Positions 2,476 through 18,615 of a DNA stretch of 63,110 bases are shown here, in pieces (the stretch's first letter is position 1; each line of letters begins with the position of its first letter). Source of the stretch: Sedimenticola sp. (GTDB taxonomy: Bacteria > Pseudomonadota > Gammaproteobacteria > Chromatiales > Chromatiaceae). A program made the translations under genes and the position numbers. The stretch covers positions 1 through 63,110 of the forward strand of contig JALWRH010000055.1 of NCBI GenBank assembly GCA_026994195.1, in the 5' to 3' direction. The notes under the pieces were generated by a model. The model saw only the letters and a program-made list of their open reading frames with translations. It had not been told where the DNA came from and ran no database searches.

Positions 2476-2580
2476 CTGTGGTATCCCCTTGCAGAAAAAT
2501 AAAATCTGTTATCCTTTATATTACCTTAAACAAATATATCAGGCCAACATGACAAACTGATGACAAGAGGGAACCAGGCC

Positions 2581-2640
2581 GTAGGTCGGACTTCAGTCCG
2601 ACATTATTCCGTTGTGGCCGCTGATATCGGGACCTACGGA
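2581..2640. repeat. GTAGGTCGGACTTCAGTCCGACA palindromic repeat
   Basis: The element begins with GTAGGTC and a near-palindrome GTCGGACTTCAGTCCGAC, and ends with GACCTAC, giving inverted ends about 60 bases apart. An outwardly related pair is present at 38012-38080. It fills most of the gap between arsR and the GAPDH gene. Such elements behave as REP/BIME-type sequences in many gammaproteobacteria. Confidence 0.75.
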
Positions 2641-3136: not shown

Positions 3137-3592
3137 ATGGCAAATTATTCCTTTTCTGAGGACCCCAAAGGTGGGGTAGGCATGGAGATTATCGCGAAAG
3201 ACCAGTTTGACATGTTTAATGCGGCAGTCGGTGCCCTGTGCTTGTTCATGTGGGATCAGGAGCACGTGAAGGAAAAAGTTGAGGTGCCCATAGCCTGGTA
3301 TGGCTTCGACGTACCAACCACCGTGGTGGGATTGCTGTCAGAAATCCTGTATCAGATGGAGACGGGTGGTTGGGTATTCAAACGATTTGTTACCCACAGC
3401 CTGGAAGAAGTGGATGATCTCGATGAACGTCACCGCCGCAAGCAGTTAAAAATCAGTGGGACGGCGTACGGGGAGAGGTATAACCCAGAAAACCATAAAA
3501 AGAGATTCGACGTAAGTGCTGTATTGCTGCCCCGTCTCAAGGTTCAGCAGGTGGATGAGGGTGTTCGCCTTTACTGTGTGTTGGATGCCTGA
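3137..3592 (+). CDS. archease-like protein, HTAD motif missing
   Basis: A 151-residue protein whose middle and end follow the archease pattern: a hydrophobic helix with LLSEILYQMETGGWVFKRF, then the GERYNPENH motif, then a strand-rich end finishing in VLD. Archease activates the RNA ligase RtcB through a metal site. In ordinary archeases the N-terminus carries HTAD, whose Asp helps bind metal. Here the equivalent stretch reads EDPKGGVGM, so that Asp is absent. No rtcB is visible in the window. The ATG at 3137 is preceded by AAGAGAAC, an acceptable ribosome site. It is divergent from arsR and stands alone before the sigma-54 control region. I am fairly confident of the fold and not of the function. 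Confidence 0.6.
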   Translation: MANYSFSEDPKGGVGMEIIAKDQFDMFNAAVGALCLFMWDQEHVKEKVEVPIAWYGFDVPTTVVGLLSEILYQMETGGWVFKRFVTHSLEEVDDLDERHRRKQLKISGTAYGERYNPENHKKRFDVSAVLLPRLKVQQVDEGVRLYCVLDA

Positions 3593-3988: not shown

Positions 3989-4711
3989 ATGGCACTTGGT
4001 TTACAGGCCCCGCCGTCCTTGGGTGTTCCGGGAAAAAAGCGCTGGGCGATGGTTATAGATTTGCGGCGTTGTATCGGCTGCATGGCCTGCGTTTGTGCGG
4101 ACAAGGCAGAATACGATGTTCCTCTGGGTGTGTGGCGAACGATCGTCAAAGTTAAGAATACGGGGAAATTTCCGAATACCAAGCGTCATTTCATGCCGCG
4201 TCTTTGCAACCATTGCGACAACCCTCCCTGTGTCCGGAACTGTCCAACCCAAGCGACTTACAAACATGAAGATGGTTTTGTTTTGCAGCGATATGAACGT
4301 TGCATCGCCTGTAGGACTTGTATCGCCGCCTGTCCTTACAACGCCCGCCATGTATTACCCAAGAATCGCGACCGTGTAAAGATTGGTGGTGTCGTCGATA
4401 AATGCACATTCTGTAACCATCGTGTTGAGAAGGGGTTGTTGCCGGCCTGCGTACAAACCTGTCTGGGGCGTTCGCGGATCTTCGGTGACCTGAATGATCC
4501 GAAGAGTGAGGTTTCGCGTTTGGTGGCAACTCACAGCACAGTGGTTTTGAAACCCGGAAAAGGTACGCAACCTCAGGTGTATTACATCAAGCCTGATCGT
4601 AGTCTTACGGAACAGGCCTACAGCGAGCCCGTGTCACATGCGGCAAAGGAAGATGCCAAGGCATTTTATCGTCACAATCGTGGCAGTAAATTCTTTTCCG
4701 GCGTTCTTTGA
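3989..4711 (+). CDS. four-cluster FeS electron-transfer subunit (PsrB/TtrB-like)
   Basis: A 240-residue ferredoxin-like subunit of the molybdoenzyme complex, expected to pass electrons between the catalytic subunit and the membrane anchor. Cys motifs: C28, C31, C34 and C36; C73, C76, C81, C85; C105, C108, C111, C115; C139, C142, C154, C158. The first set is odd: the family pattern C-x2-C-x2-C-x3-C would put the fourth Cys at residue 38, which is Asp, while a new Cys sits at 36 (CIGCMACVCADKAE). The ATG at 3989 follows GGGAGGAG and is preferred over an in-frame TTG at 3974. There is no signal peptide, so export would be by riding with the Tat-signal-bearing catalytic subunit. It is the first gene of the sigma-54 cluster, ten bases ahead of the NrfD-like gene. 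Confidence 0.88.
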   Translation: MALGLQAPPSLGVPGKKRWAMVIDLRRCIGCMACVCADKAEYDVPLGVWRTIVKVKNTGKFPNTKRHFMPRLCNHCDNPPCVRNCPTQATYKHEDGFVLQRYERCIACRTCIAACPYNARHVLPKNRDRVKIGGVVDKCTFCNHRVEKGLLPACVQTCLGRSRIFGDLNDPKSEVSRLVATHSTVVLKPGKGTQPQVYYIKPDRSLTEQAYSEPVSHAAKEDAKAFYRHNRGSKFFSGVL

Positions 4712-4721: not shown

Positions 4722-5612
4722 ATGTTTGAATTTATGGAATACAACGTTGCGCCCTGGGGCCACGAAATAACTGTTTACTTCTTCCTCATAGGAATGGCTG
4801 CAATGGTTTTTGTCTATGCCTCGGCACCGGCAGTGTTTGGTGATCTGTTCGGCGGAACAGCCAGGATCGCAATGGAACCGTTCCAGAAAATAGGGATGAT
4901 AATCAGCCTGATCCTGTTGTTGATATGCGGCCCATTGCTGATAGCCGATCTTGGCCAGCCAAGTCGCTTTCTCTATCCCATTATCCACTTTCACTGGACA
5001 TCACCACTCTCGTGGGGCTCTGTATTCCTGCCTTTGTTTGGTGCCTGTGTCGTGGGTTATCTGTTTGCGCTGATGACGAACCGCATCAGCTGGTTAAAGC
5101 CAATTGGTATTCTGGGTTGTTTGCTGGCCTTGGCCATGCCGCTATACACGGGTCTGGATCTCATGGTTCAACAGGCCCGGGAGCTTTGGAGCAACCCAAC
5201 CATACCTGTCCTGTTTGTGATTCTGTCTGTAAGTTCTGGCACTGCAGCGGTTGCCGTGACGGAGCTGGTTACCGGCAAGCTGAACAAGTCGGTAGTGGAG
5301 TTTCTGCATTGGTTCCTCTATCTGGCTGTTGCAGTTACCTTTGCCTTGTTTCTCGCCGAATGGGTCGTACTCAACTACGGCTCAGCAGAGAAGCAGCAGA
5401 TATGGCATATCATCAACAGCCAGTTTGCATTTGAATACTGGGTTCTGACATTCCTGGTTGGAATCCTCGCGCCTTTGATTTTGGTGGCCATCCCAAAAAT
5501 CGGACGCAATCCCATCCTGCTGACACTGGCAGCTGTCCTTAGCGCTGTTGGCGCATACAGTTTCCGTGCAGTGCTTATCTATGCAGGCCAGTTGGGCCAA
5601 CTCTACTACTGA
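4722..5612 (+). CDS. NrfD/PsrC-like membrane anchor subunit
   Basis: A 296-residue protein with about eight hydrophobic transmembrane segments, of the NrfD/PsrC/TtrC type. In relatives it binds quinone/quinol and connects the membrane pool to the FeS subunit without using heme. Start: the ATG at 4722 follows AGGAGG with good spacing; an in-frame start at 4638 would overlap the previous gene. The GPLLIADLGQPSRFLYP stretch between early helices is a recurring NrfD-family feature. It lies between the FeS and catalytic subunit genes, giving the order B-C-A that is known for tetrathionate (ttrBCA) and selenate (srdBCA) reductases. Confidence 0.88.
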   Translation: MFEFMEYNVAPWGHEITVYFFLIGMAAMVFVYASAPAVFGDLFGGTARIAMEPFQKIGMIISLILLLICGPLLIADLGQPSRFLYPIIHFHWTSPLSWGSVFLPLFGACVVGYLFALMTNRISWLKPIGILGCLLALAMPLYTGLDLMVQQARELWSNPTIPVLFVILSVSSGTAAVAVTELVTGKLNKSVVEFLHWFLYLAVAVTFALFLAEWVVLNYGSAEKQQIWHIINSQFAFEYWVLTFLVGILAPLILVAIPKIGRNPILLTLAAVLSAVGAYSFRAVLIYAGQLGQLYY

Positions 5613-5628: not shown

Positions 5629-8295
5629 ATGAGTAATTTTACAAGTATCAGTCGTCGAGATTTTATCAAGCTGGGTAGCGCTGCTGGAGCGGTAGGGGCA
5701 TTCGGTTTTGGTGGTCGGCGGTTGGTCGCAATGGAGCAGAAGCTGGGCGGCCAGGATTTTTCCGCTACCAGTGGTGGTGAGCGTCAGTCCGTTCCCTATA
5801 CCTGTCTGGCATGCAACATCGAAGATGGGGGTGTGGCTTATGTGGAAAATGGCCGCGTAGTTAAACTCGAGGGAAATATGGACCACCCCAATACCCGGGG
5901 CAAGCTGTGTGCCAAGGGGAACTCCGGATTTCTGCATATCTATGATCCCGACCGCATCATGACGCCGTTGCTGAGAACCGGTAAACGGGGTGAAGGCAAA
6001 TGGAAACGTATCTCCTACGATGAAGCTACCAGTCTGCTGGCCAAGAAGCTCAGGGAGGTGATTGACCGGGCCAATGCAGAGGACAAGCCCGAGATACTCA
6101 ATGAGATCGTTCTCAAATGGGGCAGGAATCGTACGGGGGGTGCCTGTGAGCGCTTCATGCATGCGCTTGGCTCCAACAGCACGATTCATCACACCGACAT
6201 TTGTGAGGCATCGAAAAAGGTTGGACTGGAGCCCTCCTGGGGGCCTGATATCGAATCCTGTGACTGGGCAAACACCAAATACATCCTGAATTTCGGTTCC
6301 AATGTTTTGGAAACGGCTTATTTCATGAATCCAAATTCCCAGCGGCTGGTCGACGGTGTGGTGGGCAACAAGGCCAAACTTGTGAGCTTTGATGTGCGCA
6401 TGTCCAACACGTCAAGTTTTGCGGATGAATGGTTTGCGCCGTTTCCAGGCACTGACGGCGCCATAGCATTGGCCATGGCTCATGTGATCATGCATGAAGA
6501 TCTCTATGACAAGGATTTTGTACGTGACTGGACCAATGTCACCGCCGAACAGCTCAAAGAACATCTGAAAACATATACACCGGAATTTGCAGAAGAGGAA
6601 TCCGGTGTGCCGGCCAAGGACATCCGGCGTATTGCGCGTGAATTCGCCACAACCAAACCGGCCACCACTTTCTCCTACCGGGGGCCCGTCAAGCATGTGT
6701 ATGGCACCTATCAGGAGGCCGCCATCCATATGCTCAATGTCATCACCGGCAACGTGGAGAAAAAAGGCGGATACTGCCTGCCTCGCGGCATGGGCTGGCC
6801 TCAGCCGGAGCCGGAACCCCCCAAAGGGAAGGCACCCAGCCTGCTGGCCAGCCCACCCGAATACCCTCTGGCTTCACATCATGTCTCCACACTGGCGCCC
6901 TACCGGCTGAAGAAAGGGGAGGCCAGGGTTTCTGTGTGGATGAGTTTTTATGACAACCCGGTCTATACCTATCCGTCTAGCCATGTATGGAAGGAGGTGT
7001 TGCAGGACGAGAACCTGATACCGTTCTTCGTGTCCTTCAGTCCTTTCATGTCTGAAACAACGGAGAATGCTGATCTGATTATTCCGGATGTCACTTATCT
7101 TGAAAGGCATGATCCGGAATCCATGCCCAGTGGACTCTATCCGTGCATGTCCATTCGGCAGCCGGTCGTCAAGCCTTTGGGCGGAACCCAGGAATTTCGT
7201 CAGACATTGATCGATGTGATTCATAAAGTGGATCCGGACGGTACGCTGGGGATAAAGAAATATTTTGCTTTCGATTCAGTCGAAGACTGGATGCGTGCAC
7301 ATTTCGATGAAATCCCCGGACTCAAGGAGCAGGGCGGCTACGATTTCCTGAAAAAGAAAGGTGTCTGGCCCATTTACGGCAAGGTTGATCCTGATACCGC
7401 CAAGATCGTTGATCGGAATGGCAATGAAGTGGAACCCGATTATGCCCTGCACGAAAAACAGCTTTCGCAATCCCAGATGGAAGGCGCGGAAATTGATGAG
7501 CAGGGAACGATACGCAAAGACGGCAAAGCCATAGGCGTACAGATCAATGGCAAGAACTATGTGGGTTTTGGCACACCATCCAAGAAGATAGAACTGTACA
7601 AGGAAAACTTCAAGAAGTATGGCTTCAATCCACTGCCGGTATACAAGCGCCTGCCCTCCCGCGATAAGAAGGACAATGAAATGGTGTTGTCCACTTACAA
7701 AGTGAACGTGCATACCCAAAGCAGGACCGCTTCCATCAAGTATCTTGCAGAGCTTTATCACAAGAATCCGGCCTGGATCAACAGCAAGAGTGCGGCGGCA
7801 AGAGGTATCAAGGATGGCGAACTGATACGTGTTACCTCGAAACTGGGCTACATAGTCACCCAGGCGCATGTTACTGAAGGTATCCGGCCCGATGTTATCG
7901 CTATCTCAACGGCATGTGGGCATTCTTCCTATGGTCGTCTTTCCCAGCTGAAGGTAAAGGAGCAGGCGCCTGTTTGGTCCCAGGGTGGAGGTGATGTGGA
8001 TATTGCCAACAATGTCTGGTGGGACGACAAGGGGGTTCATCCCAATCCCATCATTCAGCTTGCAGTTGATCCTATCGGTGGATCCCAGGGATGGTTTGAT
8101 ACTGTGGTTACGGTCAGCAAGGCAGAACCCGGGGACAGTTACGGTGATGTAAAGGCCAGTGTCGAGGCGTCTGTCAAAGACTATGAAGAAACCCTGCGCT
8201 ATGCCTATACAGGAGACCTGCACCGCAAGAACCACAAAGAAGTGGATATCGAATGGGATCATCTGCCGCCGGCTTCATTGCACGGGCATGGGTGA
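5629..8295 (+). CDS. Mo-bisPGD catalytic subunit, DMSO-reductase family, Tat-exported
   Basis: An 888-residue catalytic subunit of the Psr/Phs/Ttr/Arr/Arx part of the DMSO-reductase family. A twin-arginine motif SRRDFIK opens residues 8-14, followed by a hydrophobic Ala/Gly stretch, so the enzyme should be periplasmic. The FS0 cluster site reads C59-x2-C62-x3-D66-x27-C94: the third Cys is Asp. Cys192 in HHTDICEAS is the likely Mo ligand. GTDGAIALAMAH (around 274-285) and the C-terminal molybdopterin-dinucleotide-binding domain are typical. The start at 5629 follows GGAGG; an in-frame ATG at 5548 lies within the anchor gene. Longer than PsrA/PhsA (about 760) and shorter than TtrA (about 1020). 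Substrate is unknown: sulfur oxyanions, polysulfide or arsenic oxyanions are the obvious candidates. Confidence 0.88.
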   Translation: MSNFTSISRRDFIKLGSAAGAVGAFGFGGRRLVAMEQKLGGQDFSATSGGERQSVPYTCLACNIEDGGVAYVENGRVVKLEGNMDHPNTRGKLCAKGNSGFLHIYDPDRIMTPLLRTGKRGEGKWKRISYDEATSLLAKKLREVIDRANAEDKPEILNEIVLKWGRNRTGGACERFMHALGSNSTIHHTDICEASKKVGLEPSWGPDIESCDWANTKYILNFGSNVLETAYFMNPNSQRLVDGVVGNKAKLVSFDVRMSNTSSFADEWFAPFPGTDGAIALAMAHVIMHEDLYDKDFVRDWTNVTAEQLKEHLKTYTPEFAEEESGVPAKDIRRIAREFATTKPATTFSYRGPVKHVYGTYQEAAIHMLNVITGNVEKKGGYCLPRGMGWPQPEPEPPKGKAPSLLASPPEYPLASHHVSTLAPYRLKKGEARVSVWMSFYDNPVYTYPSSHVWKEVLQDENLIPFFVSFSPFMSETTENADLIIPDVTYLERHDPESMPSGLYPCMSIRQPVVKPLGGTQEFRQTLIDVIHKVDPDGTLGIKKYFAFDSVEDWMRAHFDEIPGLKEQGGYDFLKKKGVWPIYGKVDPDTAKIVDRNGNEVEPDYALHEKQLSQSQMEGAEIDEQGTIRKDGKAIGVQINGKNYVGFGTPSKKIELYKENFKKYGFNPLPVYKRLPSRDKKDNEMVLSTYKVNVHTQSRTASIKYLAELYHKNPAWINSKSAAARGIKDGELIRVTSKLGYIVTQAHVTEGIRPDVIAISTACGHSSYGRLSQLKVKEQAPVWSQGGGDVDIANNVWWDDKGVHPNPIIQLAVDPIGGSQGWFDTVVTVSKAEPGDSYGDVKASVEASVKDYEETLRYAYTGDLHRKNHKEVDIEWDHLPPASLHGHG

Positions 8296-9094: not shown

Positions 9095-10246
9095 ATGTCT
9101 ATGCGCATCTTAATGGTAGAAGCATCAGGGCGGGGGTTTCTTTGTCATTATGCGCATGCATTGTGCCTGGGTCTGCACGAAGCAGGCCATAAGGTCACAT
9201 TGATTACAGGTATGCGGGATGAACTGATCGACTGGAAAGTTCCTTTCGAAAAATTGGCCTGTCTGAAGACGGGGCGGCATGGATGGCGCTGCCTGAAAAG
9301 AGAAATCAAGCGATTGCAGCCGGATGCAGTACATCTCCAATGGATAGACAATCCGCTGTCCGCAATCGCGTTCGTCTATTGGGCAAAAAGGCAGGGCATT
9401 CGCGTCATTTATACACCCCACAATATTCTGCCTCATCGGGCGCGATGGCTGAATATGCCTGCCTATCGTATTCTTTATCATCTGGTCGATCGTATCGTGG
9501 CCAGAGACAGGCATATTGCCTGGGGTCTTGAAGAAATCTTTGATGCACCGCGCCGCAAGACAGTATTTTTAGCTGGAAGCCCTAATTTACTGGCACATCC
9601 TACCCTCCCTCCTGCCTCTTCCTGTGCTGGACTGGTGGAGCTCCCGGGCAAGCAAACCGGTGAGTTCCGCCTGCTTTTTTTTGGGCATGGCTGTCGGCGA
9701 AAGGGACTGGATCTGCTGCTGCAGGCTTTGGGCAATAAGAATTGGCCCTCTCACCTCCATCTGGTGGTCGCGGGTGAGGAAGTGTTACGGGGCATTGACG
9801 CCAACAGTATAAGTAAACTGCGCAATCGGCTGCACACCACGGTAATCAACAGATACGTTCCTCCTGTTGCTGTTTCTGCGTTGCTTCGTGAGGCGGATTT
9901 GATGCTGATGCCTTATGTAAAACAATGCAAGAGCCCCCTGATGGACATGGCGGCGGCTTTTTGCCTGCCTGTATTGCGCTCCGACCGGGTGAAAGGGGCA
10001 AGTTTCACGGAAGGTTTACATGGACTGACCATCCCTCATGATGACATCGCAGAACTTCAAAAGGGTATCGAGAAGCTGACAGTGGAACCCGAGCGGTTGC
10101 AGCGTATGCGTATGGCGATGGAGAGTGAAGAAACGGTATTGGATGCGATAAGGCGTCTAAGCGAAGAACATATTCGGCTCTATACCGAACTGTGTGGAGT
10201 TTCATTCAGAAAGTCGAGCGGCACATTCAGTTTGGTGAAGACCTGA
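9095..10246 (+). CDS. GT-B fold glycosyltransferase (GT4-like)
   Basis: A 383-residue protein with the two-domain layout of GT4 glycosyltransferases. The N-terminal half starts MRILMVEASGRG and contains VHLQWIDNP and YTPHNILPH. The C-terminal half has the glycine-rich FFGHGCRRKGLDLLLQAL motif and SPLMDMAAAFCLPVLRSD, where the nucleotide-sugar-binding region is expected. It would move a sugar from an activated donor to an unknown acceptor in the cytoplasm. It is nine bases from the TorD-like gene and so probably cotranscribed with a respiratory enzyme, which is unusual. Either ATG (9095 or 9101) could be used; neither has a strong ribosome site. Confidence 0.75.
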   Translation: MSMRILMVEASGRGFLCHYAHALCLGLHEAGHKVTLITGMRDELIDWKVPFEKLACLKTGRHGWRCLKREIKRLQPDAVHLQWIDNPLSAIAFVYWAKRQGIRVIYTPHNILPHRARWLNMPAYRILYHLVDRIVARDRHIAWGLEEIFDAPRRKTVFLAGSPNLLAHPTLPPASSCAGLVELPGKQTGEFRLLFFGHGCRRKGLDLLLQALGNKNWPSHLHLVVAGEEVLRGIDANSISKLRNRLHTTVINRYVPPVAVSALLREADLMLMPYVKQCKSPLMDMAAAFCLPVLRSDRVKGASFTEGLHGLTIPHDDIAELQKGIEKLTVEPERLQRMRMAMESEETVLDAIRRLSEEHIRLYTELCGVSFRKSSGTFSLVKT

Positions 10247-10350
10247 GCAAGTTTACAGTTTGGCTACGCTGTGTCAGGGAAAATGTAAAGGTTTGGTGAT
10301 CCTGCATGCTTGCACAATAAACCCGAGTGACAATGAGACGGTAATGAACA

Positions 10351-10803
10351 ATGGCAGTGGGAAAAACGATTATATTGATTGCACATGAACGCATGACCTC
10401 AGACCTGATCAAGCTGATGAGCAGGAAGCTTGCCGTTTTTCAGGAATACCGGCTGCTGGCCACAACTGAGACGGGCGAGGCAATAGAAAAGGAACTGGAC
10501 CTGGAGGTAACCCATCTTTTTTCGGGAAAAAAAGGTGGTGAGATACAGCTTTGTGGCCTGATTTGCACCAATACGATCAGAGCGGTTTATTTCCTCCGTG
10601 ACCCTGTTTCTCCAGCGTTCGACGAGCCAGATATTGTCCCCTTTTACCGTGCCTGTGATCTGAACAATGTTGCCATGGCAACCAACATGGTTGGCGCCGT
10701 GGCCCTGACGCACTGGTTGGGCAGAAAGGTTGATCAGGCTGACAGCAGGTCTGTGCCGGAGACACCAGTCGATCATCACAATCGGGATGAAGCATGCGCC
10801 TAG
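10351..10803 (+). CDS. methylglyoxal-synthase-like domain protein
   Basis: A 150-residue protein that aligns over most of its length with MgsA (glycerone phosphate to methylglyoxal): IILIAHERM, ATTETG, LFSGKKGGE, and a final VAMATNMVGA where MgsA has VATNVATA. Compared with E. coli MgsA, the phosphate- and metal-free active site is altered: His19 is kept (His12), but Asp71 is Glu64, His98 is Asp91 and Asp101 is kept (Asp94). It may therefore be a repurposed fold rather than an active synthase. The 104-base gap before it is the largest inside the cluster, with no clear promoter. Its end overlaps the polyferredoxin start by ten bases, implying translational coupling. Confidence 0.7.
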   Translation: MAVGKTIILIAHERMTSDLIKLMSRKLAVFQEYRLLATTETGEAIEKELDLEVTHLFSGKKGGEIQLCGLICTNTIRAVYFLRDPVSPAFDEPDIVPFYRACDLNNVAMATNMVGAVALTHWLGRKVDQADSRSVPETPVDHHNRDEACA

Positions 10804-11942
10804 AAAACCGCGAACAGGCAGGTACTTTGCTGCAGGCATCCAGTCTGCTTGTTGACGAAGCGCTATGTCTGAATCTGCGCGGGCGGGTAATGTCCTGCAG
10901 TGCCTGCCGGGACAGTTGTGAGTCTGAAGCCCTGATGCTGAGTACCGACATGGTGGAAGTGGATGCAGAATGTTGCACGGCCTGTGGTGCCTGCGTACCC
11001 GGTTGTCCCGCAGGTGTCCTGCATCTCAGTGGTTTTTCACCGCCACGGTTTATTGCCTCTCTTGAAGCATCTGATGAGATGCACATCCACTGTAGTGAAA
11101 GCAGCGATAAAGGTGGCGGGGTGGTAATCCCCTGCCATAAATTGCTGGATGCCCGGCTGATTGCTTCTGCGGCACCGGCAACTGCAGGAAAAATCCTGTT
11201 GCACGGACTCAATGAGTGTGAAACCTGTATCAAGGGGGATGCGTCTTCACATCTCGATGATGTCGAGGCAACTCTCAGGAAATGGTTTGCTGAAAGGGCT
11301 CCCCAAATCGAGCGCCTGGCTCCGAATGAAGACAACATTCCGGGAAAACGCAGATATGAAGATCAGCCGTCGATGAACCGACGCAATTTCCTGCGTTTGA
11401 TGGGCGCGCAGGCCTCCTCAGGTACCGCAGACTGGATCCTGCCCATTGCAGATGAAAAAGAGGTTTCACCCCTGCCGTTCTACCAGGGGGAAGGCTGTAT
11501 CCAGCGGCCGGTGGTGTACCAGCAAATGCTGGCAACACGGGCTACCCGGGTGCCATGGTCTGACAAGGCTGAACTGCCGTGGCAATCACGTCTATTGGGA
11601 GAAACCTGTACGGCGTGCATGACCTGCGGTGATCGTTGTCCCACGGGCGCATTGCAATCCGTCGTGGAAGGCGTTCATAAAAAGATTACTTTTGAGACGG
11701 CTCTCTGTACGAACTGTGGGTTGTGCGTCAATCTCTGTCCGGTAGACGCTGTACAGCCCTTCGAACTGAATTCTGCCGAGCAGGTGAATGCACCGAGAAC
11801 ATTGCTCATGCAGCAGACACTGCAGGTCTGTGCGCAATGTGGTGATCTGTTTGATGCAGAGGCTTCTGGTGGGAATTTGTGTTCGATTTGCAGCAATGAG
11901 CAGGATCTGGATGGAGAATGGCTTCAGATGTTACAGGGATAG
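10794..11942 (+). CDS. polyferredoxin with internal Tat-like motif and zinc-ribbon end
   Basis: A 382-residue protein with several cluster sites: an incomplete first set (C25, C35, C38, C42), C61-x2-C64-x2-C67-x3-C71, a middle region with C100, C114, C142 and C145, then C272/C275/C278/C282 and C305/C308/C311/C315. The last 40 residues hold C346, C349, C363 and C366, a zinc-ribbon-like arrangement. At residues 194-203 MNRRNFLRLM resembles a Tat signal in the middle of the chain, suggesting a fusion of a cytoplasmic and a formerly exported ferredoxin, or an internal start at 11373. It would serve as an electron carrier for the complex or for its assembly. I do not recognise a named family. Confidence 0.72.
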   Translation: MRLENREQAGTLLQASSLLVDEALCLNLRGRVMSCSACRDSCESEALMLSTDMVEVDAECCTACGACVPGCPAGVLHLSGFSPPRFIASLEASDEMHIHCSESSDKGGGVVIPCHKLLDARLIASAAPATAGKILLHGLNECETCIKGDASSHLDDVEATLRKWFAERAPQIERLAPNEDNIPGKRRYEDQPSMNRRNFLRLMGAQASSGTADWILPIADEKEVSPLPFYQGEGCIQRPVVYQQMLATRATRVPWSDKAELPWQSRLLGETCTACMTCGDRCPTGALQSVVEGVHKKITFETALCTNCGLCVNLCPVDAVQPFELNSAEQVNAPRTLLMQQTLQVCAQCGDLFDAEASGGNLCSICSNEQDLDGEWLQMLQG

Positions 11943-12210
11943 ACGATGTGTTCTGGTTTTGATCCTGCTGCCGGTAATGTTGTTCGGATGGTGGTGGGGC
12001 CATTTGCCACGAACGCCAAAGGAATATTTTCAGGTGCGTTGCGCCAACTGTCATGACCTGCCATCGAAGGACCTATGTAAACGCAGTCGTGAAGAACGGG
12101 CTGGAATCGTCCATGCCATGCGTACTCTGCATGGCGCGGCTGAGGTCATAGATGAAGAAGAAGCACTGATTATCACTACTTATTTAAAGGAAAGCTTTAC
12201 ATGTCCATAA
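11911..12210 (+). CDS. small membrane-anchored monoheme cytochrome c
   Basis: A 99-residue protein with an uncleaved-looking hydrophobic segment at residues 13-29 (CVLVLILLPVMLFGWWW) and one heme site, CANCH, at 44-48. Met70 is a possible distal ligand. The heme domain would face the periplasm, close to the exported enzyme. The ATG at 11911 overlaps the end of the polyferredoxin by 32 bases and has AGGA a few bases upstream; a longer open frame back to 11788 lies wholly inside that gene and is less likely. Its end overlaps the next gene by ten bases. Confidence 0.68.
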   Translation: MENGFRCYRDRRCVLVLILLPVMLFGWWWGHLPRTPKEYFQVRCANCHDLPSKDLCKRSREERAGIVHAMRTLHGAAEVIDEEEALIITTYLKESFTCP

Positions 12211-13277
12211 GTCAATCGGTTCAAATGGCAGCGTCACTGGAAGAATATGTGCTGAAGGCCCTGCACAGCGTGACAGAAGGCCCTGGTGGTCTGGATATAG
12301 TAAGTTCCGGGCAGGTATTTGATGTTGTGGCTACCGGTGGGGCAGTACGAGTGCTTCTCGATACTGATCATATTCCCGATGGGACGGAAGAAATGCTGGC
12401 AGAGGTTATTACTCCTTTTGTTGAAGCGCTGCCTGGTGTCGATCGGGTTGTCGTAAAACCCAGGCCTCGCTCCATTGCCATGCGGGAGAGCCTGCCGGGT
12501 ATCACTCATGTTATCGGCGTACATAGCGGTAAGGGTGGTGTCGGAAAATCCACGGTAGCTGTCAATCTTGCCGTAGCACTGGCGCAACAGGGCATCAGTG
12601 TGGGGTTGCTCGATGCAGATGTCTATGGACCCTCTTGCCCAACCTTGTTGGGTATCACGGGAAGAGTGGAGACAACGGATGATGGTGAAAAGATCGCACC
12701 CATGAATCGGCATGGTGTGTCGCTGATGTCTCTGGGGTTGTTGTTGCCGGAAGGTCAGGCGCTCATCTGGCGTGGTTCACTGGTCGATCAGGGTCTGCCA
12801 CAATTGTTGACAGATGTTGACTGGGGCAGATTGGATCTGTTGCTGGTGGATCTCCCGCCAGGCACCTCTGACGTACATCTGGCCGTTGCCCGGCATGCTT
12901 CCCTGTCAGGTGTGGTAACAGTAACGTCTCCCGGTCAGGTCTCCATAGATGATGTGCGCCGGGGGATGGAGATGTTTGCGGACCTGCAAATTCCCTGCCT
13001 GGGGTTGGTACAGAATATGGCCGGCGTGGCATGCCAAAAATGCGGCGAAGTGGGTGCCTTGTTCGGCGTTGATGGGGGCGGTGATCTCGCCGTTGAAATC
13101 GGAGTCCCCGTACTTGCCAGCCTCCCTTTCGTGCCTGAACTAGCCATACAAAGTGATCTGGGTGAACCCCTGGTGATCAGTCGTCTGGGTTCTGCAGCCT
13201 CACGGGTTTTTCACGAACTGGCGGGAAGGCTGGCCACGGGATTGTGTATTGGCGAGCGGAAGGAGGTGTTATCATGA
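12201..13277 (+). CDS. Mrp/NBP35-family FeS carrier ATPase, first copy
   Basis: A 358-residue P-loop ATPase of the Mrp/ApbC/NBP35 group, which carry and insert FeS clusters. Residues about 12-88 look like the small MIP18-type N-terminal domain. The deviant Walker A GKGGVGKST is at 110-118, and LLLVDLPPGTSD at about 213-224. The cluster-binding pair is Cys278/Cys281 (ACQKCGE), where the family has CPxC. A second Mrp gene follows with an ATGA overlap. Both sit inside the molybdoenzyme operon, so a dedicated maturation role is likely (inference). Confidence 0.85.
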   Translation: MSISQSVQMAASLEEYVLKALHSVTEGPGGLDIVSSGQVFDVVATGGAVRVLLDTDHIPDGTEEMLAEVITPFVEALPGVDRVVVKPRPRSIAMRESLPGITHVIGVHSGKGGVGKSTVAVNLAVALAQQGISVGLLDADVYGPSCPTLLGITGRVETTDDGEKIAPMNRHGVSLMSLGLLLPEGQALIWRGSLVDQGLPQLLTDVDWGRLDLLLVDLPPGTSDVHLAVARHASLSGVVTVTSPGQVSIDDVRRGMEMFADLQIPCLGLVQNMAGVACQKCGEVGALFGVDGGGDLAVEIGVPVLASLPFVPELAIQSDLGEPLVISRLGSAASRVFHELAGRLATGLCIGERKEVLS

Positions 13278-14188
13278 ATCAGCCATTTCCATATCAGGTC
13301 GAGGTTGGCAATGCCGAAACCGGCGTCATGTATGGTGAGCCAGGGTCCGATATTCCCAGCGTCAGCGATGTGGTTCTGATAGCCAGTGGCAAGGGTGGGG
13401 TGGGCAAGTCCATGGTAACCGTGAATCTCGCCTGTGCCTTGAAACAGCGGGGCAAGCGGGTTGGTGTGCTGGATGCAGATCTCTACGGGCCATCCATAGC
13501 CCGTATGCTCGGCACCGACAACGGCCTCGAATACAATGAAGCCGGCCAGGTTTTACCAGCCGTAAGCCACGGCATTCCAAGTATATCTGTGGCCAATATT
13601 CTGCCACCGGAAGCTGCCCTGGTATGGAAGGGGCCGCTGGTTGCTCAGGCACTAGTACAAATGTTCCGTGAAGTCGCCTGGCCGGAGCTCGATGTCCTGC
13701 TCGTGGATTTACCGCCGGGAACAGGAGATGTGCAATTGACTATTCTGGAACAGATACCCGTGACCGGTACTGTGTTGGTAAGCACCCCTCAAAAACTGGC
13801 TATGGCGGATGCGGAGCGCGGTGTGGCGCTGTTTCACGAACTGGATATCCCCGTGTTTGGCATCGTTGAAAACATGGACAGTTATATCTGCCCCTGCTGT
13901 GGTGAAAAGCAAACCCTGTTTCCACAGGGCGGGGTTAAAACCCTGGCCGAACAGAAACACGTCGCCTATTTGGGGGGCATTCCTCTGGATCCTGCTGCCC
14001 AGTCCAATGCAGATAACGGTACGCCTTTGTTTGAAACCCATGGAGCGGACAACCTGATAGAGGCTTTTGAAGCATTGGCAGACACGGTGGAAAAATCAGT
14101 GGAGCGTGAGCGCAGGTTACGTTTGGCGGATGCCGATGAATCGACCCGGGCGGCACATCAGGCATTTTGGGAAAGGCTGGTTGATTGA
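13274..14188 (+). CDS. Mrp/NBP35-family FeS carrier ATPase, second copy
   Basis: A 304-residue paralogue of the preceding protein that lacks the MIP18-like N-terminal domain. Walker A reads GKGGVGKSM (39-47), with Met in place of the usual Thr. LLVDLPPGTGD follows at about 142-152, and the cluster-binding cysteines are C206 and C209 in ICPCCGE, close to the standard CPxC. The start at 13274 overlaps the previous stop (ATGA). Mrp/NBP35 proteins can form heterodimers in other organisms, and the strict pairing here suggests the two products work together. Confidence 0.85.
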   Translation: MNQPFPYQVEVGNAETGVMYGEPGSDIPSVSDVVLIASGKGGVGKSMVTVNLACALKQRGKRVGVLDADLYGPSIARMLGTDNGLEYNEAGQVLPAVSHGIPSISVANILPPEAALVWKGPLVAQALVQMFREVAWPELDVLLVDLPPGTGDVQLTILEQIPVTGTVLVSTPQKLAMADAERGVALFHELDIPVFGIVENMDSYICPCCGEKQTLFPQGGVKTLAEQKHVAYLGGIPLDPAAQSNADNGTPLFETHGADNLIEAFEALADTVEKSVERERRLRLADADESTRAAHQAFWERLVD

Positions 14189-14201
14189 GAGAGTTGCTGA
14201 T

Positions 14202-14945
14202 ATGAAAAACGCAAAATTGTATATATCTTTACGTGATATTGGGGATACATCCCAGCAGATCGAAAATTATGGTGAGGCGGCAGGCCTGGTTGTTCCTCCA
14301 GAGAAAATCGAACCGCATCAGATTGAGGGTTCGCCGAGCGTTATTTTGGAAACCCTGGATCCTGGAGCTTACCCACAATGGCGTGAGGGTGTACAAGGTA
14401 TCTGGTCTAGTGATGCGCCATTGGATAGCATTGCCAAAACAAGGGATGAATGGCCTGAGCTGAATTTCCTGCCTCGATTGAATGTTTATCAGCCGGAAGT
14501 GGGTTACCACTTTAATCCAACATCCCTGGGAGAGGGGTTCAAGTTTTATACGCCGGATACGGCGACCATACAAACCTATCGGACTATACAGGATGACTAC
14601 ACCCTGGAAGATCAGATTCAACGAACAGTGAAACTGGGCTTTGATGCGCTATGGTTGCATGCCACCCATGCAGAAGTTTCCGGCAAGGGACTTGATCTGG
14701 ATCTGCTGGAGCGTGCTTCAAGATTGTTTGATGGGGATTTGTGGATATCAGGTGGCGCTACCGAGGAGCGGCATTTGAAGAACCTGAGTAAACAGGGTGG
14801 GTTTGCCGCAGTGGTCATTGGAGAGGCTCTGGTCTTCGATTGTGGATGTGAGCCACTGCTGACCGCACTGGAGCCTGAGGGACCAACCGGCGTTACCGTA
14901 TCCTTTGAGACCCGGCCGGATCAGGCGAGTGCAGAGATCATGTGA
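14202..14945 (+). CDS. unrecognised protein, barrel-like C-terminal half
   Basis: A 247-residue soluble protein. I do not recognise the family. The C-terminal half (GFDALWLHATHAEVSGKGLD, WISGGATEERHLKNL, AAVVIGEALV) has the alternating strand-helix rhythm and late glycine-rich turn of phosphate-binding TIM barrels such as HisA/HisF or ThiG. The N-terminal half shows no motif I can place. No signal peptide. The ATG at 14202 follows GAGAGAG; the open frame extends back to 14067 inside the Mrp gene and is not preferred. It ends in a four-base overlap with the rhodanese-like gene, so it belongs to the operon. A sulfur- or cofactor-handling enzyme is possible but unproven. Confidence 0.65.
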   Translation: MKNAKLYISLRDIGDTSQQIENYGEAAGLVVPPEKIEPHQIEGSPSVILETLDPGAYPQWREGVQGIWSSDAPLDSIAKTRDEWPELNFLPRLNVYQPEVGYHFNPTSLGEGFKFYTPDTATIQTYRTIQDDYTLEDQIQRTVKLGFDALWLHATHAEVSGKGLDLDLLERASRLFDGDLWISGGATEERHLKNLSKQGGFAAVVIGEALVFDCGCEPLLTALEPEGPTGVTVSFETRPDQASAEIM

Positions 14946-15421
14946 CTTCTTTCCGTATATATGTACTGTTGTGCCTGGTCGCAATCAGCCAGATGCCAGC
15001 CTTGGTGGTTGCCGCCACCTGGACAATGATAGATGCGCCTGAGTTACAACGGTGGCTCCGCCAGATCGATCCCCCGCTGCTGCTGGACATACGCGGAGGA
15101 GAAGTGTATTCGGCAGGTACCATGCCAGAGGCGCTGAATACAGGCAAAGACCCCAAGGGCTTTTTAGCAGACGGGCGAGGGGGGCGTGTCGTGTTGATAA
15201 CATCTCAGCCAATTGATGACGGGCTGCTCTCTGCCTGGGTCAAGCGTTTGAAGGATGCCCGACACGAAGTTTTTGTGCTCAAGGGCGGGATGCCAGCTTG
15301 GGAAGAATCCGGGGGGGCTGTCATCATCCCGCAACAAATCTACGTCAAACCAGGTACTGTTCCCTTCGTCATACCCAAGGGTTTGTGTGAGGGAGATGAG
15401 CCCGCTCAGGAGTATGAATAA
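14942..15421 (+). CDS. periplasmic rhodanese-like protein without catalytic Cys
   Basis: A 159-residue protein starting at a GTG that overlaps the previous stop. Residues 1 to about 25 form a signal peptide. The rest is a single rhodanese domain: LLLDIRGGEVYSAGTMPEAL, then RVVLITSQPIDDG, then a VFVLKGGMPAWEE end. In active rhodaneses the loop after the VVLI-type strand holds the sulfur-carrying Cys; here it is TSQPIDDG. The only Cys left in the mature protein is near the C-terminus (GLCEGD). It is therefore probably a binding or scaffold domain, or uses the late Cys differently. Confidence 0.78.
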   Translation: MTSFRIYVLLCLVAISQMPALVVAATWTMIDAPELQRWLRQIDPPLLLDIRGGEVYSAGTMPEALNTGKDPKGFLADGRGGRVVLITSQPIDDGLLSAWVKRLKDARHEVFVLKGGMPAWEESGGAVIIPQQIYVKPGTVPFVIPKGLCEGDEPAQEYE

Positions 15422-16280
15422 AGCGTTGCCGGTGCTGTTGCTTCTGTGTTCAATGATGCCTTGTGTGGCCGAGCAAAATTTGTCTATTGCCACCGTGCCT
15501 AAAAAAGAAGGCGCTTGCGAAGACTGCCATGCAAAGGAAGCAGAGGAGTTTCGGCGTGGCCCGATGGCCAGCGCTGCTCGCACCCAGGATTTTTTGGGGG
15601 AGCAGTCAAAGGCCAAACAACCTGACCATTGTCTGAAATGTCATGCGCCACAGGGAGGTGAAGGTGTTGCCTGTGTGGATTGTCATGGTGCCGGCAATCA
15701 TCCTTATGCCCGGGTAGGAGTTCCTCAAGCCTGCAGTCAATGTCATGACGCGCCGGGTGAAAATACGGTTCGCAGCTTCCGGCATTTGAGATCAACAGTG
15801 CCGGGTACGGACTGTATCGGCTGCCATACCAGCAGCAATAAGAGCTTTTCCCATGATTTTATTGGTGTCAGCAGACGCAGTTTTCTTGAGGGCGTCGCCC
15901 GGCTCCGTTCCTTTCTGCATCGTGAAAAAGACAATGCCTGGCATCTGACCGTGCTGATTCGGCATCGAGCCGGCCACGCGCTACCGGGTGGTACTACGGG
16001 CCGATCTGTGTGGCTGAGAGTAACCGGCAGAACCAGGGGGGGCGAAATAATGTGGGAAAAAAGTCGACGGTTTGGGTGGGAATACAGCCCGGATTCCGGA
16101 TGGGTGGACCGCAGTTTGCCGCCAGGCAGGACGACACGAATACAAATGAGCGTTCCGGATGCGGCGGGTATTTACCAAATCCGCGCCGAATTGGTTTATC
16201 GTTTCAAGGCAGGCCCTCTGGATACCCTAGATTCCAATGAGACAGAGTTGGATTCACTGAATATCCATTTGGCCAATTGA
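15396..16280 (+). CDS. secreted pentaheme cytochrome c
   Basis: A 294-residue protein with a signal peptide (MNKALPVLLLLCSMMPCVAEQ) and five CxxCH heme sites: CEDCH, CLKCH, CVDCH, CSQCH and CIGCH, all in the first 140 residues, resembling the cytochrome c554-type multiheme packing. The remaining 150 residues are strand-rich with no heme site, perhaps a docking domain. It would carry electrons in the periplasm to or from the molybdoenzyme. The ATG at 15396 gives a short leader before the second ATG at 15414, which may be the real start; both overlap the rhodanese-like gene. Confidence 0.85.
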   Translation: MSPLRSMNKALPVLLLLCSMMPCVAEQNLSIATVPKKEGACEDCHAKEAEEFRRGPMASAARTQDFLGEQSKAKQPDHCLKCHAPQGGEGVACVDCHGAGNHPYARVGVPQACSQCHDAPGENTVRSFRHLRSTVPGTDCIGCHTSSNKSFSHDFIGVSRRSFLEGVARLRSFLHREKDNAWHLTVLIRHRAGHALPGGTTGRSVWLRVTGRTRGGEIMWEKSRRFGWEYSPDSGWVDRSLPPGRTTRIQMSVPDAAGIYQIRAELVYRFKAGPLDTLDSNETELDSLNIHLAN

Positions 16281-16306
16281 ATTTGAAGAGGAAGGAATGT
16301 TCCGCT

Positions 16307-17176
16307 ATGACCATGCTTAAAAATAGTGGCGCCGTGCGGCGATGGGGACTTGTCATTCTAGGGTCATTGTTATTTTCAACGGCCGCAATCGCCGAAGAAA
16401 CAACCATCAGGATCGGTTTGACTGCAGTCTTTCTGGACAATAAAACTTCCTTCCTGAGGCAATGGGAAAGGTATTTGGAAGGAAAAGCCCATAGGCCGGT
16501 TGAATTCATCCAGCGTCAGTCCTATCGTGAAATAACCGATTTGCTGATGAAAGAACGCATCGATGCAGCATGGATATGCGGCTACCCTTTTGTGAAATAC
16601 AAAGACGAACTGCATTTGCTGGCTGTTCCGCTCTACAAAGGTAAGCCACTGTATCAGTCTTATATGATTGTGCCGGTCAGTGATACCACCACCAAAGGCA
16701 TCGAAGACCTGCAGGGCGCCGTATTTGCTTATTCTGATCCTGATTCTAATTCAGGGTTTCTTGTGCCACAGGTTGATCTGTTGAAGAAAGGTATTGATCC
16801 CAAGCATTTTTTCTCAAAGACATTTTTTACCTGGTCACATCGTGATGTGGTCGTGGCAGTTGCAGAGGGTCTTGCCAAAGGAGGAGCAGTTGACGGTTAC
16901 GTATGGGATACATTGGCTCAAACACATCCGGAACTGACCAAACGTACAAGAATAGTATCAAGATCAGAATGGTTTGGTTTTCCACCATTTGCTTCCAGAA
17001 CAGGCCTGTCGGAGGCGAGTTTTCGGCTTATTCAGGATATCCTGATAAACATGAAGAATGATCCGGTCGGGGCCGCTTTGCTGAAGAAGCTGAATATAGA
17101 TGGTTTCACCAGAGGGGATGTAGCACTCTTCGATGGCATTGCTGATGAAATCGGGATCCTCGATGCAAGACGATGA
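16307..17176 (+). CDS. PhnD-like periplasmic binding protein (sensing component)
   Basis: A 289-residue protein with a signal peptide (GLVILGSLLFSTAAIAEE) and the phosphate/phosphonate-binding PhnD fold: IRIGLTAVFLDNK, the RIDAAWICGYPFVKY segment, and FAYSDPDSNSGFLVP in the hinge. In TtrS a PhnD-like domain is fused to the kinase; in the Arx arsenite-oxidase clusters a separate one (ArxX) sits beside ArxS and ArxR. Here the gene overlaps the kinase gene by four bases (ATGA), matching the ArxX layout. It probably binds the substrate and signals to the kinase. Start at 16307 after AGGAAGGA. Confidence 0.8.
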   Translation: MTMLKNSGAVRRWGLVILGSLLFSTAAIAEETTIRIGLTAVFLDNKTSFLRQWERYLEGKAHRPVEFIQRQSYREITDLLMKERIDAAWICGYPFVKYKDELHLLAVPLYKGKPLYQSYMIVPVSDTTTKGIEDLQGAVFAYSDPDSNSGFLVPQVDLLKKGIDPKHFFSKTFFTWSHRDVVVAVAEGLAKGGAVDGYVWDTLAQTHPELTKRTRIVSRSEWFGFPPFASRTGLSEASFRLIQDILINMKNDPVGAALLKKLNIDGFTRGDVALFDGIADEIGILDARR

Positions 17177-18615
17177 ATTTTATAAAGAACCTGAGTTATC
17201 GCTACAAAGTCCCACTCATGTTGAGCGCGACTATACTTATCACAGTGATTATTGTGAGCCTGCTGCTGGCTTGGCATGCTCATGAGGATCTGAAGAAAGA
17301 TCTTTTCCGTAACGCTGTAGAAGTAGGCAGCGTTTTGTCAAATTCCTTGCCGGTAGCAATGAAACACGATGATTTGTGGCTTTCATATCAGATACTGAAT
17401 GCTGCAAAGGTAGATGATGAAGGAGCCGATTCTGCAAGAATACTGATTGTGTTGGATGACGAATACAAGGTTTATGTTTCCAGTGATCCCCGCAGGTATC
17501 CTGTGCTGAGCACACTGCAGCAACAAGGGGTGGAGCTTGCGCGTGTTGTAAAACAAATCAAGCACAGGCCTTCTCTGGTGCCCTATGAACTGGAGCAAGA
17601 TGAGTACATCTATGCTGTCGTTCCCATGATAGATGATGGCATTGCCCTGGGTACACTGATTATTGGTTATTCCCGTTCATTGCTGTTGTCCAGATACAAA
17701 GCCATTCTTGTTCGTGCCGCCTATTCTGCATCTATCGTATTGGTCGTTCTGTTACCCTTCGGCTGGTTTCTGGGTAAACGTGCTGTCAAGCCCTTGATAC
17801 AGCTGGCTGGGTGCCTTGGCAAGGTGGTACATGAACCACTGGATAAAGTACAGTGTTCCCTAGTTGAAGGGCGTGATGAAATTGGGCAGCTGGGCGTCAG
17901 TTTTCGCAAGATGCTCCTTGAATTGCAGCAGAAGCAGCGCCTCGAATCTCAGGTGATCCAGTCTGAAAAATTGGCTGCCGTTGGTCGTCTGGCGGCGGGG
18001 GTGGCGCATGAAATTAATAATCCACTGGGCGGTATGCTCAATGCTATCAATACTTCCCGTCACCATGGTCAGCAGGATGCAGTAACGGATAAGACCCTTT
18101 CATTGCTGGAAAGAGGCCTGACCCAAATTGGTGAGACAGTATCGGCTTTGCTCGTTGAGGCACGGCAGGAAAGTCATGAACTGACGCCCCAGGATATTGA
18201 TGACATATACGTGCTGCTTCAGCCGGATGCCGAACAGCAATCGGTCACTCTGCATTGGCAAAATGCTTTGACAACACCATTGAACCTGCCATCTTCACTG
18301 GTCAGGCAACTGTTGATCAATCTCTCCCTGAATGGAATACAGGCTTCCTCACAGGGAGGTTCTGTAGACTGCAAAATAAGAGAAACTGACAAGGTGCTGG
18401 ATATACAGGTGTGCAATGCAGGCAGGGATATTCCCGAGGATCAGATTGCAAAGTTGTTTGAGCCCTTCGTGCGTATGAAACCCAATGGCAGTGGGCTTGG
18501 TCTTTGGGTCAGCTATCAGATCGTGCAGCAACTGCATGGAGCGATAGATGTAGTAAGCACAAAGGGCCGAACCTGTTTTACAGTGAGACTGCCCCTGATG
18601 GCAGAGGCGACTTGA
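17173..18615 (+). CDS. sensor histidine kinase
   Basis: A 480-residue membrane kinase. Transmembrane segments at about 14-33 and 180-200 enclose a roughly 145-residue periplasmic domain that would contact the PhnD-like protein. A HAMP-like linker follows, then the H box with His279 (AAGVAHEINNPLGGM), and the ATPase domain with N box LINLSLNGIQAS and G box GSGLGLWVSY. The H-box form is the one found in NtrB-like kinases that partner sigma-54 activators. It should phosphorylate the regulator encoded next, whose ATG overlaps the stop codon. Confidence 0.9.
   Translation: MNFIKNLSYRYKVPLMLSATILITVIIVSLLLAWHAHEDLKKDLFRNAVEVGSVLSNSLPVAMKHDDLWLSYQILNAAKVDDEGADSARILIVLDDEYKVYVSSDPRRYPVLSTLQQQGVELARVVKQIKHRPSLVPYELEQDEYIYAVVPMIDDGIALGTLIIGYSRSLLLSRYKAILVRAAYSASIVLVVLLPFGWFLGKRAVKPLIQLAGCLGKVVHEPLDKVQCSLVEGRDEIGQLGVSFRKMLLELQQKQRLESQVIQSEKLAAVGRLAAGVAHEINNPLGGMLNAINTSRHHGQQDAVTDKTLSLLERGLTQIGETVSALLVEARQESHELTPQDIDDIYVLLQPDAEQQSVTLHWQNALTTPLNLPSSLVRQLLINLSLNGIQASSQGGSVDCKIRETDKVLDIQVCNAGRDIPEDQIAKLFEPFVRMKPNGSGLGLWVSYQIVQQLHGAIDVVSTKGRTCFTVRLPLMAEAT

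What the first reader, a model, noticed from the sequence alone, without database searches (positions are those of the whole stretch)
5803..5910. FS0 site of the catalytic subunit also carries Asp for Cys
The N-terminal cluster motif is C59-x2-C62-x3-D66-x27-C94. Spacing is exactly that of FS0 in the family, but the third Cys is Asp. Two adjoining electron carriers in one complex therefore have Asp substitutions. The two Mrp ATPases in the operon might serve such clusters (inference).
Basis: partly seen in the sequence, partly recalled or inferred. Interest (0 to 1): 0.65.

Follow-up and report, generated by a model that had tools for sequence, protein, structure and literature searches.

The report
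Asp replaces Cys at molybdoenzyme cluster
A family of molybdenum enzymes from sulfur-oxidising and purple bacteria carries an aspartate where its relatives use a cysteine to hold the first iron-sulfur cluster, and the swap is kept across species and arose at least twice, so it is a real design feature rather than a local mutation.

Summary
The catalytic subunit (window 5629-8295, 888 aa, TAT signal) has C59-x2-C62-x3-D66-x27-C94 at exactly 5803-5910, and D66 aligns with a Cys in solved polysulfide and arsenate reductases. It is not local: 25 of 25 readable members of the operon's clade have Asp, as do a sister group (5 of 5) and most of a third (13 of 15). On a tree built without the site, position 66 changes at least three times, Cys to Asp twice and back once. 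Of 69 rows keeping C62 and C94, it is Asp in 44, Cys in 24, Thr in 1. This favours Asp66 as an FS0 ligand; ligation itself is inferred.

In the iron-sulfur subunit, Asp38 always comes with a new Cys36 (18 of 18; 0 of 35 without Asp38), is missing in 5 of 23 clade members, and by recalled homology belongs to FS2, not next to FS0. The Mrp genes do not track Asp. The substrate is unknown; gene content is partly arx-like. Filed as a new variant of the DMSO-reductase (MopB) family.

The parts
5629..8295 (+). Catalytic molybdopterin subunit (MopB), 888 aa, TAT signal
   Evidence: Pfam Molybdopterin, Molydop_binding, Molybdop_Fe4S4, TAT_signal; best solved relative 2vpw_A; model pLDDT 83.7, Foldseek best 2vpw_A and 6cz7_A
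5803..5910 (+). FS0 motif C59-x2-C62-x3-D66-x27-C94
5824..5826 (+). Asp66 codon GAT at the third FS0 ligand position
6202..6204 (+). Cys192, Mo-ligand position (present in groups I, II, IV; G, S or N in group III)
   Evidence: alignment; the role as Mo ligand is recalled from PsrA-type enzymes
3989..4711 (+). Four-cluster ferredoxin (NrfC/PsrB-like) subunit, 240 aa, with C28xxC31xxC34xC36xD38
4094..4102 (+). Cys36 to Asp38 of the Fe-S subunit (extra Cys plus Asp at the usual fourth-Cys position)
4722..5612 (+). NrfD/PsrC-type membrane anchor
   Evidence: Pfam NrfD 132 bits
8315..9085 (+). TorD-like chaperone (start codon uncertain)
   Evidence: Pfam Nitrate_red_del
9095..10246 (+). Glycosyltransferase (family 4 type), conserved in the cluster
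10351..10803 (+). Methylglyoxal-synthase-like protein
   Evidence: NCBIfam NF003559 99.8 bits, cut-off 84; TIGR00160 93.9 bits, below its cut-off 146.9
10794..11942 (+). Poly-ferredoxin, weakly ArxB2-like
   Evidence: 26% over 340 aa to the Sulfuricella protein at the arxB2 position, 24% to that of Cereibacter
11788..12210 (+). Small protein with one CxxCH motif (start codon uncertain)
   Evidence: sequence; relatives in most longer clade loci
12201..13277 (+). Mrp/ApbC-type ATPase 1 (with FeS_assembly_P domain)
13274..14188 (+). Mrp/ApbC-type ATPase 2
14175..14945 (+). His_biosynth-like protein (start codon uncertain)
14942..15421 (+). Rhodanese-like protein
15255..16280 (+). Multihaem c-type cytochrome (start codon uncertain)
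   Evidence: Pfam Cytochrome_C7
16277..17176 (+). PhnD-like periplasmic binding protein (ArxX-like position)
   Evidence: TIGR01098 106.7 bits, just under cut-off 112.05; 43-49% to proteins at the ArxX position in L117 and L118
17173..18615 (+). Sensor histidine kinase (ArxS-like position)
18504..19955 (+). Sigma-54-type response regulator (ArxR-like position; homology begins near residue 44, so the start is uncertain)
3137..3592 (+). Archease-family protein, upstream in several clade members
   Evidence: Pfam Archease; relatives in 7 fetched clade-I loci

Best explanation
This is the catalytic subunit of a periplasmic, quinone-linked complex iron-sulfur molybdoenzyme (B-C-A-D gene order: ferredoxin, NrfD anchor, Mo subunit, TorD chaperone). 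Its FS0 cluster is held by three cysteines and Asp66, which takes the place of the third cysteine and most likely binds one iron of a [4Fe-4S] cluster. The cluster still relays electrons between the Mo site (Cys192) and the ferredoxin subunit, with a potential and spin state tuned by the oxygen ligand. Shown: the residue, its alignment, its conservation in the clade, and its repeated exchange with Cys. Inferred: export, quinone link, that the carboxylate binds iron, that the cluster is [4Fe-4S], and the redox effect. The substrate is unknown, probably a sulfur or metalloid oxyanion.
For: D66 aligns with a Cys of the site in 2vpw_A, 6cz7_A and 7qv7_S. Asp in 25 of 25 readable clade-I members: 20 of the 21 loci (L043 lacks the N-terminus), plus window, L021, L061, L062 and L089/L130; GAT 13 and GAC 11 among the 24 besides the window. 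In the 70-row tree set, Asp in 21 of 21 group I, 5 of 5 group II, 13 of 15 group III and 5 of 5 group IV rows. Minimum of three C/D changes on trees with and without the motif columns (four if the Thr row is counted); with the motif columns removed, groups I+II+III have support 100/99 and group IV 100/100. Among 69 tree rows that keep C62 and C94, position 66 is D in 44, C in 24, T in 1; L087, which has lost those Cys, has no Asp either (a Glu aligns there). No Cys is shared by the Asp groups but missing from the Cys-type relatives (C211 and C506 are clade-I only), so no replacement thiol is apparent. Non-Cys FS0 ligands occur elsewhere: three Cys and one His in the NarG/EbDH subfamily (passages of PMC8840923).
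Against: No structure with the cluster, no Fe content, no EPR. The AlphaFold model has no cluster, its coordinates could not be measured here, and local confidence is modest: block means 72 for residues 61-70 and 57 for 91-100, which holds C94. 43% of columns are invariant in clade I, so invariance alone is weak evidence. One distant relative (L103) has Thr at the position, so another residue is tolerated somewhere, and two group III rows have Cys. Rows were gathered by similarity to the window protein. Asp could be conserved for a reason other than metal binding.
Confidence: 0.6

Rival explanations
1. FS0 is a three-iron [3Fe-4S] cluster held by C59, C62 and C94; Asp66 lies near the empty corner but is not a permanent ligand, as in some ferredoxins with Asp in place of Cys that switch between 3Fe and 4Fe forms (recalled).
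For: Three Cys and one Asp is the classic arrangement for an interconvertible cluster (recalled). AioA, in the same superfamily, has a [3Fe-4S] cluster with a Ser at one position (recalled).
Against: If the corner were simply vacant, more residue types than C and D would be expected; only D (44), C (24) and one T occur in 69 rows.
Confidence: 0.25
2. FS0 is lost or non-functional in this clade and the three Cys are remnants.
For: A relative joined to group III in the tree (L087) has lost all four Cys/Asp positions.
Against: C59, C62 and C94 are invariant in the rows of groups I-IV and the Lys two residues after C94 is kept there; decay should not preserve three Cys plus Asp across two classes.
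Confidence: 0.07
3. Another side chain or thiol (for example clade-I C211 or C506) supplies the fourth ligand and Asp66 is a bystander.
For: C211 is in 21 of 21 and C506 in 20 of 21 clade-I rows and in none of the rows of groups II, III, IV or the Cys-type set.
Against: Groups II, III and IV have Asp66 without either Cys.
Confidence: 0.06
4. The Asp residues and the Mrp ATPases are one system: the Mrps load unusual Asp-ligated clusters.
For: Hits to both Mrp proteins in 17 of the 21 loci (the other four stretches end before that point) and in L021, L061, L062 and L130. A further Mrp gene (44% identity) lies elsewhere in the genome on contig C53, so the operon pair may be specialised.
Against: No Mrp gene in the fetched loci of Asp66 groups II (0 of 5; the one weak hit in L060 lies inside its annotated arsA gene) and III (0 of 11); both present in the five clade-I operons with ordinary Cys38; an Mrp/NBP35 gene follows all-Cys FS0 enzymes in Natrinema and Rhodococcus. 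The fetched loci are 12-31 kb, so a distant Mrp gene is not excluded.
Confidence: 0.05

Closest known systems
Polysulfide/thiosulfate reductase PsrABC / PhsABC
   Same: Fold, TAT signal, four-cluster ferredoxin and NrfD-type anchor; best solved match 2vpw for both subunits; FS0 spacing
   Different: FS0 third ligand position is Cys there; NCBIfam PhsA 383 bits against cut-off 694; E. coli PhsA is a long, separate branch in the tree
Anaerobic arsenite oxidase Arx (arxB2ABCD, arxXSR)
   Same: PhnD-HK-sigma54 regulator triad, a weakly ArxB2-like ferredoxin, ferredoxin and NrfD-type subunits, Mo subunit and TorD genes (arx gene set from passages of PMC6549141); arsenic-resistance genes beside the window, L044 and L060
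   Different: Catalytic subunit 27-32% identical to the ArxA rows and separate from them in the trees; FS0 all-Cys in the ArxA rows; order B-C-A-D; extra GT, MGS, Mrp, rhodanese and multihaem genes. That L117 and L118 are arx loci is my inference from gene order; their records say only molybdopterin-dependent oxidoreductase
Type II DMSO reductase subfamily (NarG, EbdA, SerA, PcrA)
   Same: A non-Cys residue serves as one FS0 ligand (His) (passages of PMC8840923, and PMC8301774)
   Different: His at the first position (HxxxCxxxC pattern) rather than Asp at the third; Asp as Mo ligand there, Cys192 here
Natrinema / Thermomicrobium / Rhodococcus MopB enzymes (L112-L114)
   Same: Long relatives (31-32% identity), branching next to the Asp clade in the careful tree (97/93); two of three are followed by an Mrp/NBP35 gene
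   Different: All-Cys FS0; in L112 and L114 the Fe-S and NrfD parts lie in one annotated CDS upstream

Membership tests
MopB / DMSO reductase family (complex iron-sulfur molybdoenzyme) | Molybdopterin and dinucleotide-binding domains | tested here: met
   Pfam PF00384 98.6 bits, PF01568 60.8 bits, both over cut-off
MopB / DMSO reductase family (complex iron-sulfur molybdoenzyme) | Four-cluster ferredoxin and NrfD-type anchor subunits encoded alongside | tested here: met
MopB / DMSO reductase family (complex iron-sulfur molybdoenzyme) | Bound Mo-bis-pterin cofactor and Fe-S clusters | not testable with these tools
   needs purified enzyme
PhsA / PsrA | NCBIfam PhsA curated cut-off | tested here: not met
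   383.1 bits, cut-off 694
PhsA / PsrA | All-Cys FS0 ligands | tested here: not met
   D66
ArrA | NCBIfam ArrA curated cut-off | tested here: not met
   186.5 bits, cut-off 1600
ArxA | Groups with ArxA in a tree | tested here: not met
   The ArxA rows form a separate clade: SH-aLRT 100, 100/100; their naming as ArxA is my inference from gene order
ArxA | ArxXSR-like regulators and ArxB2-like ferredoxin in the cluster | tested here: inconclusive
   Present, but the same triad also flanks a Cys-type relative (L023) and group IV loci, so it is not specific; ArxB2 likeness only 24-26%
AioA | NCBIfam arsenite oxidase large subunit cut-off | tested here: not met
   TIGR02693 25.7 bits, cut-off 359
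Type II DMSO reductases | His as first FS0 ligand and Asp as Mo ligand | tested here: not met
   Cys at positions 59 and 192
TtrA / SrdA | TtrA cut-off; grouping with SrdA | tested here: inconclusive
   TtrA 115.7 bits, cut-off 1750: not met; no SrdA reference sequence was fetched

The most novel reading that the evidence does not exclude
A widespread, unnamed family of periplasmic molybdoenzymes uses an Asp-ligated FS0 cluster that evolved at least twice from, and once back to, the all-Cys form. In part of it, a ferredoxin-cluster Cys has also moved two residues with Asp taking its old place, so the redox chain has been re-tuned at two non-adjacent relays for an arsenic- or sulfur-oxyanion reaction.
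Probability: 0.35. Interest if true: 0.65.

Novelty: new variant of a known kind. Interest (0 to 1): 0.5.

Why it matters
FS0 links the Mo site to the ferredoxin chain (PMC8840923, passages). His-ligated FS0 is known, but my searches of the open library turned up no description of Asp-ligated FS0 (listings; 0 papers). Gains in two lineages and a reversal give natural Asp/Cys comparisons for how ligand chemistry tunes an electron relay. Motif-based annotation (CxxCxxxC) may misread these enzymes: Pfam's Fe4S4 model matched only residues 70-106, past the first three ligands. It also marks a conserved, uncharacterised respiratory operon in sulfur-oxidising and purple bacteria.

Tried and rejected
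Local mutation or sequencing error: rejected, since 24 of 24 other readable clade loci carry Asp codons. ArxA, ArrA, PhsA and AioA membership: tests not met; TtrA not met, SrdA untestable (trees). Mrp-Asp link: rejected. Arsenic specificity from the regulator triad: weakened, because the same triad flanks a Cys-type relative and group IV loci. Arsenic genes nearby: MFS-GAPDH-ArsR beside the window (the MFS and GAPDH had no hit in any of the 25 loci, ArsR one, in L042; flanks there are at most 10 kb and those columns were not printed for later loci); arsC/D/A/acr3 beside Azoarcus KH32C; acr3 and arsC beside L044, and acr3 beside L117. Too few to settle the substrate. An ArrA-family search of 185 genomes found none over the cut-off.

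AlphaFold models gave only confidence and secondary structure, so ligand distances could not be measured. In the Fe-S model residues 33-41 are a helix, in which Cys36 and Asp38 would not point the same way; whether Cys36 can replace the usual Cys is undecided.

Rows dropped: the 70-row tree left out 29 ids that were duplicates, truncated or distant, one of which (L060) came back as a named reference (script); among the rest L029, L038, L041 and L045 have Asp, L024 has Cys and L043 lacks its N-terminus. The 56-row tree left out 14 more rows as long branches or near-duplicates. Several rows carried untrimmed upstream translation. L088 has the same coordinates as L025 and was not counted twice. 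In the Fe-S count three clade-I loci (L038, L041, L043) were left out because they had no readable motif, and reference rows were left out. Sampling was by similarity to the window protein, so the Asp:Cys ratio is not a census of the superfamily.

Papers: passages only for PMC8840923, PMC8301774, PMC6549141, PMC6620896, PMC10100899 and PMC7331816; passages plus one section for PMC5052931; search listings for the rest. The library lacks most subscription journals, so 'not described' is limited; of the papers those listed, I opened only PMC8301774 and PMC8840923, by passages.
Full report
Observation. The ORF from 5629 to 8295 encodes an 888-residue molybdopterin oxidoreductase with a TAT signal. 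C59-x2-C62-x3-D66-x27-C94 spans 5803-5910 exactly as stated; the codons are TGT, TGC, GAT, TGT. In phmmer alignments with the solved PsrA (2vpw_A), ArrA (6cz7_A) and FdhF (7qv7_S), D66 falls on a Cys and the other three on Cys. That those Cys bind FS0 is established knowledge of the family.

Is it local? No. One genome-collection scan found 21 relatives. The 20 with a readable N-terminus have Asp; L043 is truncated. Adding the window, G017 (L021), G106 (L061), G083 (L062) and G829 (L089/L130) gives 25 of 25. They come from Sedimenticola, Thiodiazotropha, Allochromatium, Thiocystis, Magnetospirillum, Rhodobacteraceae and others (titles). The Asp codon is GAT in 13 and GAC in 11 of 24 loci. As a caution, 43% of clade-I columns are invariant.

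How far does it reach? Searches of 369 class genomes, 398 phylum genomes and 96 family genomes (overlapping sets) found 15, 16 and 14 genomes with a match at E up to 1e-100. Four Asp groups emerged: I, the window clade (74% identity or more); II (56-59%), including the Azoarcus KH32C plasmid; III (about 40-48%), mostly with CTxCPY[FY]D; and IV (about 38-44%), with CW[QG]CVTRD, beside CxQCVxRC relatives. In the 70-row tree set, position 66 is Asp in 44, Cys in 24, Thr in 1 (L103) and lost in 1 (L087). By group, Asp is in 21 of 21 (I), 5 of 5 (II), 13 of 15 (III, with L095 and L098 Cys) and 5 of 5 (IV). A careful 56-row tree built without the motif columns keeps I+II+III together (100/99) and IV separate (100/100), with a minimum of three C/D changes. 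The simplest history is two gains of Asp and one return to Cys.

Reading. A position that alternates between Cys and Asp while the neighbouring Cys are kept, and is lost together with them in L087, behaves like a metal ligand. No Cys is shared by the Asp groups and missing from the Cys-type relatives. I therefore take Asp66 as the fourth ligand of FS0 (inferred). A [3Fe-4S] cluster with Asp at the open corner is the main rival. His-ligated FS0 in the NarG/EbDH subfamily shows that a non-Cys FS0 ligand is workable (PMC8840923, passages).

The iron-sulfur subunit. Its first motif is C28xxC31xxC34xC36xD38. Over 53 rows, Asp38 occurs in 18, each with Cys36; Cys38 occurs in 35, none with Cys36. In clade I it is 18 Asp and 5 Cys; over the whole tree position 38 needs a minimum of 2 changes. 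So a thiol has appeared two residues earlier where the usual one is gone; whether Cys36 or Asp38 binds the cluster is open. From recalled NarH ligation this is FS2, with FS1 between it and FS0; PMC8840923 states that electrons pass from FS0 to FS4 in numerical order. 'Adjoining' is therefore not supported.

Mrp. Hits to both Mrp proteins occur in 17 of the 21 loci, and the other four stretches end before that point. The five operons with Cys38 are among the 17. No Mrp gene was found in the fetched loci of groups II (0 of 5; a weak hit in L060 lies inside its arsA gene) and III (0 of 11), and an Mrp/NBP35 gene follows all-Cys enzymes in Natrinema and Rhodococcus. The genome has another Mrp elsewhere. 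The Mrp link to Asp fails in both directions.

Function. Gene order is ferredoxin, NrfD, Mo subunit, TorD, then GT, methylglyoxal-synthase-like, ferredoxin, a CxxCH protein, Mrp1, Mrp2, a His_biosynth-like protein, rhodanese, multihaem cytochrome and a PhnD-HK-sigma54 triad. The triad is 28-49% identical to that of two plasmid loci that I read as arx from gene order (L117, L118), and the ferredoxin 24-26% identical to their ArxB2-position protein. But the triad also flanks a Cys-type relative and group IV loci, and the catalytic subunit is outside ArxA in both trees. Sedimenticola selenatireducens, which carries the operon (L027), does not respire arsenate according to PMC5052931 (section read). 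A sulfur or metalloid oxyanion is likely; the substrate and the direction of the reaction are not determined.

Structure. AlphaFold2 on 36 rows gave mean pLDDT 83.7, lower around the site (72 for residues 61-70, 57 for 91-100), with best Foldseek matches 2vpw_A and 6cz7_A. The Fe-S subunit gave 69.4 with best match 2vpw_B. Distances were not available.

Novelty. Motif strings for C-x2-C-x3-D gave 0 papers. Searches for Asp-ligated clusters in molybdoenzymes listed 10 and 1 papers; no listed title or abstract opening describes FS0 with Asp, and in the one that holds 'aspartate ligand' (PMC8301774) the phrase refers to Mo (passages). I rate it a known family with a new variant of its first cluster.

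Noticed in passing
L121, L071, L078-L086, L095-L098, L100: Group III relatives (mostly about 780-800 aa) have G, S or N at the Mo-ligand Cys position (15 of 15). In L121 the genes lie near NirJ (545.9 bits, cut-off 515), siroheme decarboxylase and a NapC-type cytochrome: a possible haem-d1-linked MopB lineage.
   Followed up: partly
L087 / L133 (G467): A relative in which the FS0 Cys/Asp residues and the Mo-ligand Cys are gone, yet ferredoxin and NrfD genes remain alongside.
   Followed up: no
L103 (G059): A more distant MopB protein with Thr at the third FS0 position (CNQCGGQTG).
   Followed up: no
window 143-2988 (-): MFS transporter, GAPDH and ArsR-type genes next to the operon, resembling the ArsJ/GAPDH arsenate-efflux set (names recalled, no family search made); MFS and GAPDH had no hit in the 25 loci, ArsR one (L042).
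   Followed up: partly
window 3989-4711: The Fe-S subunit just passes the NCBIfam cut-off for DsrO (202 against 200 bits), so automatic annotation may call it a DsrMKJOP subunit although it sits with a Mo enzyme.
   Followed up: no
L112, L114: Mrp/NBP35 gene directly after a MopB gene on haloarchaeal and Rhodococcus plasmids (the latter near DsrE and TusA genes): a recurrent MopB-Mrp pairing.
   Followed up: partly
window 9095-10803: A glycosyltransferase and a methylglyoxal-synthase-like gene are kept in this respiratory operon in most of the longer clade loci; their role is unexplained.
   Followed up: no
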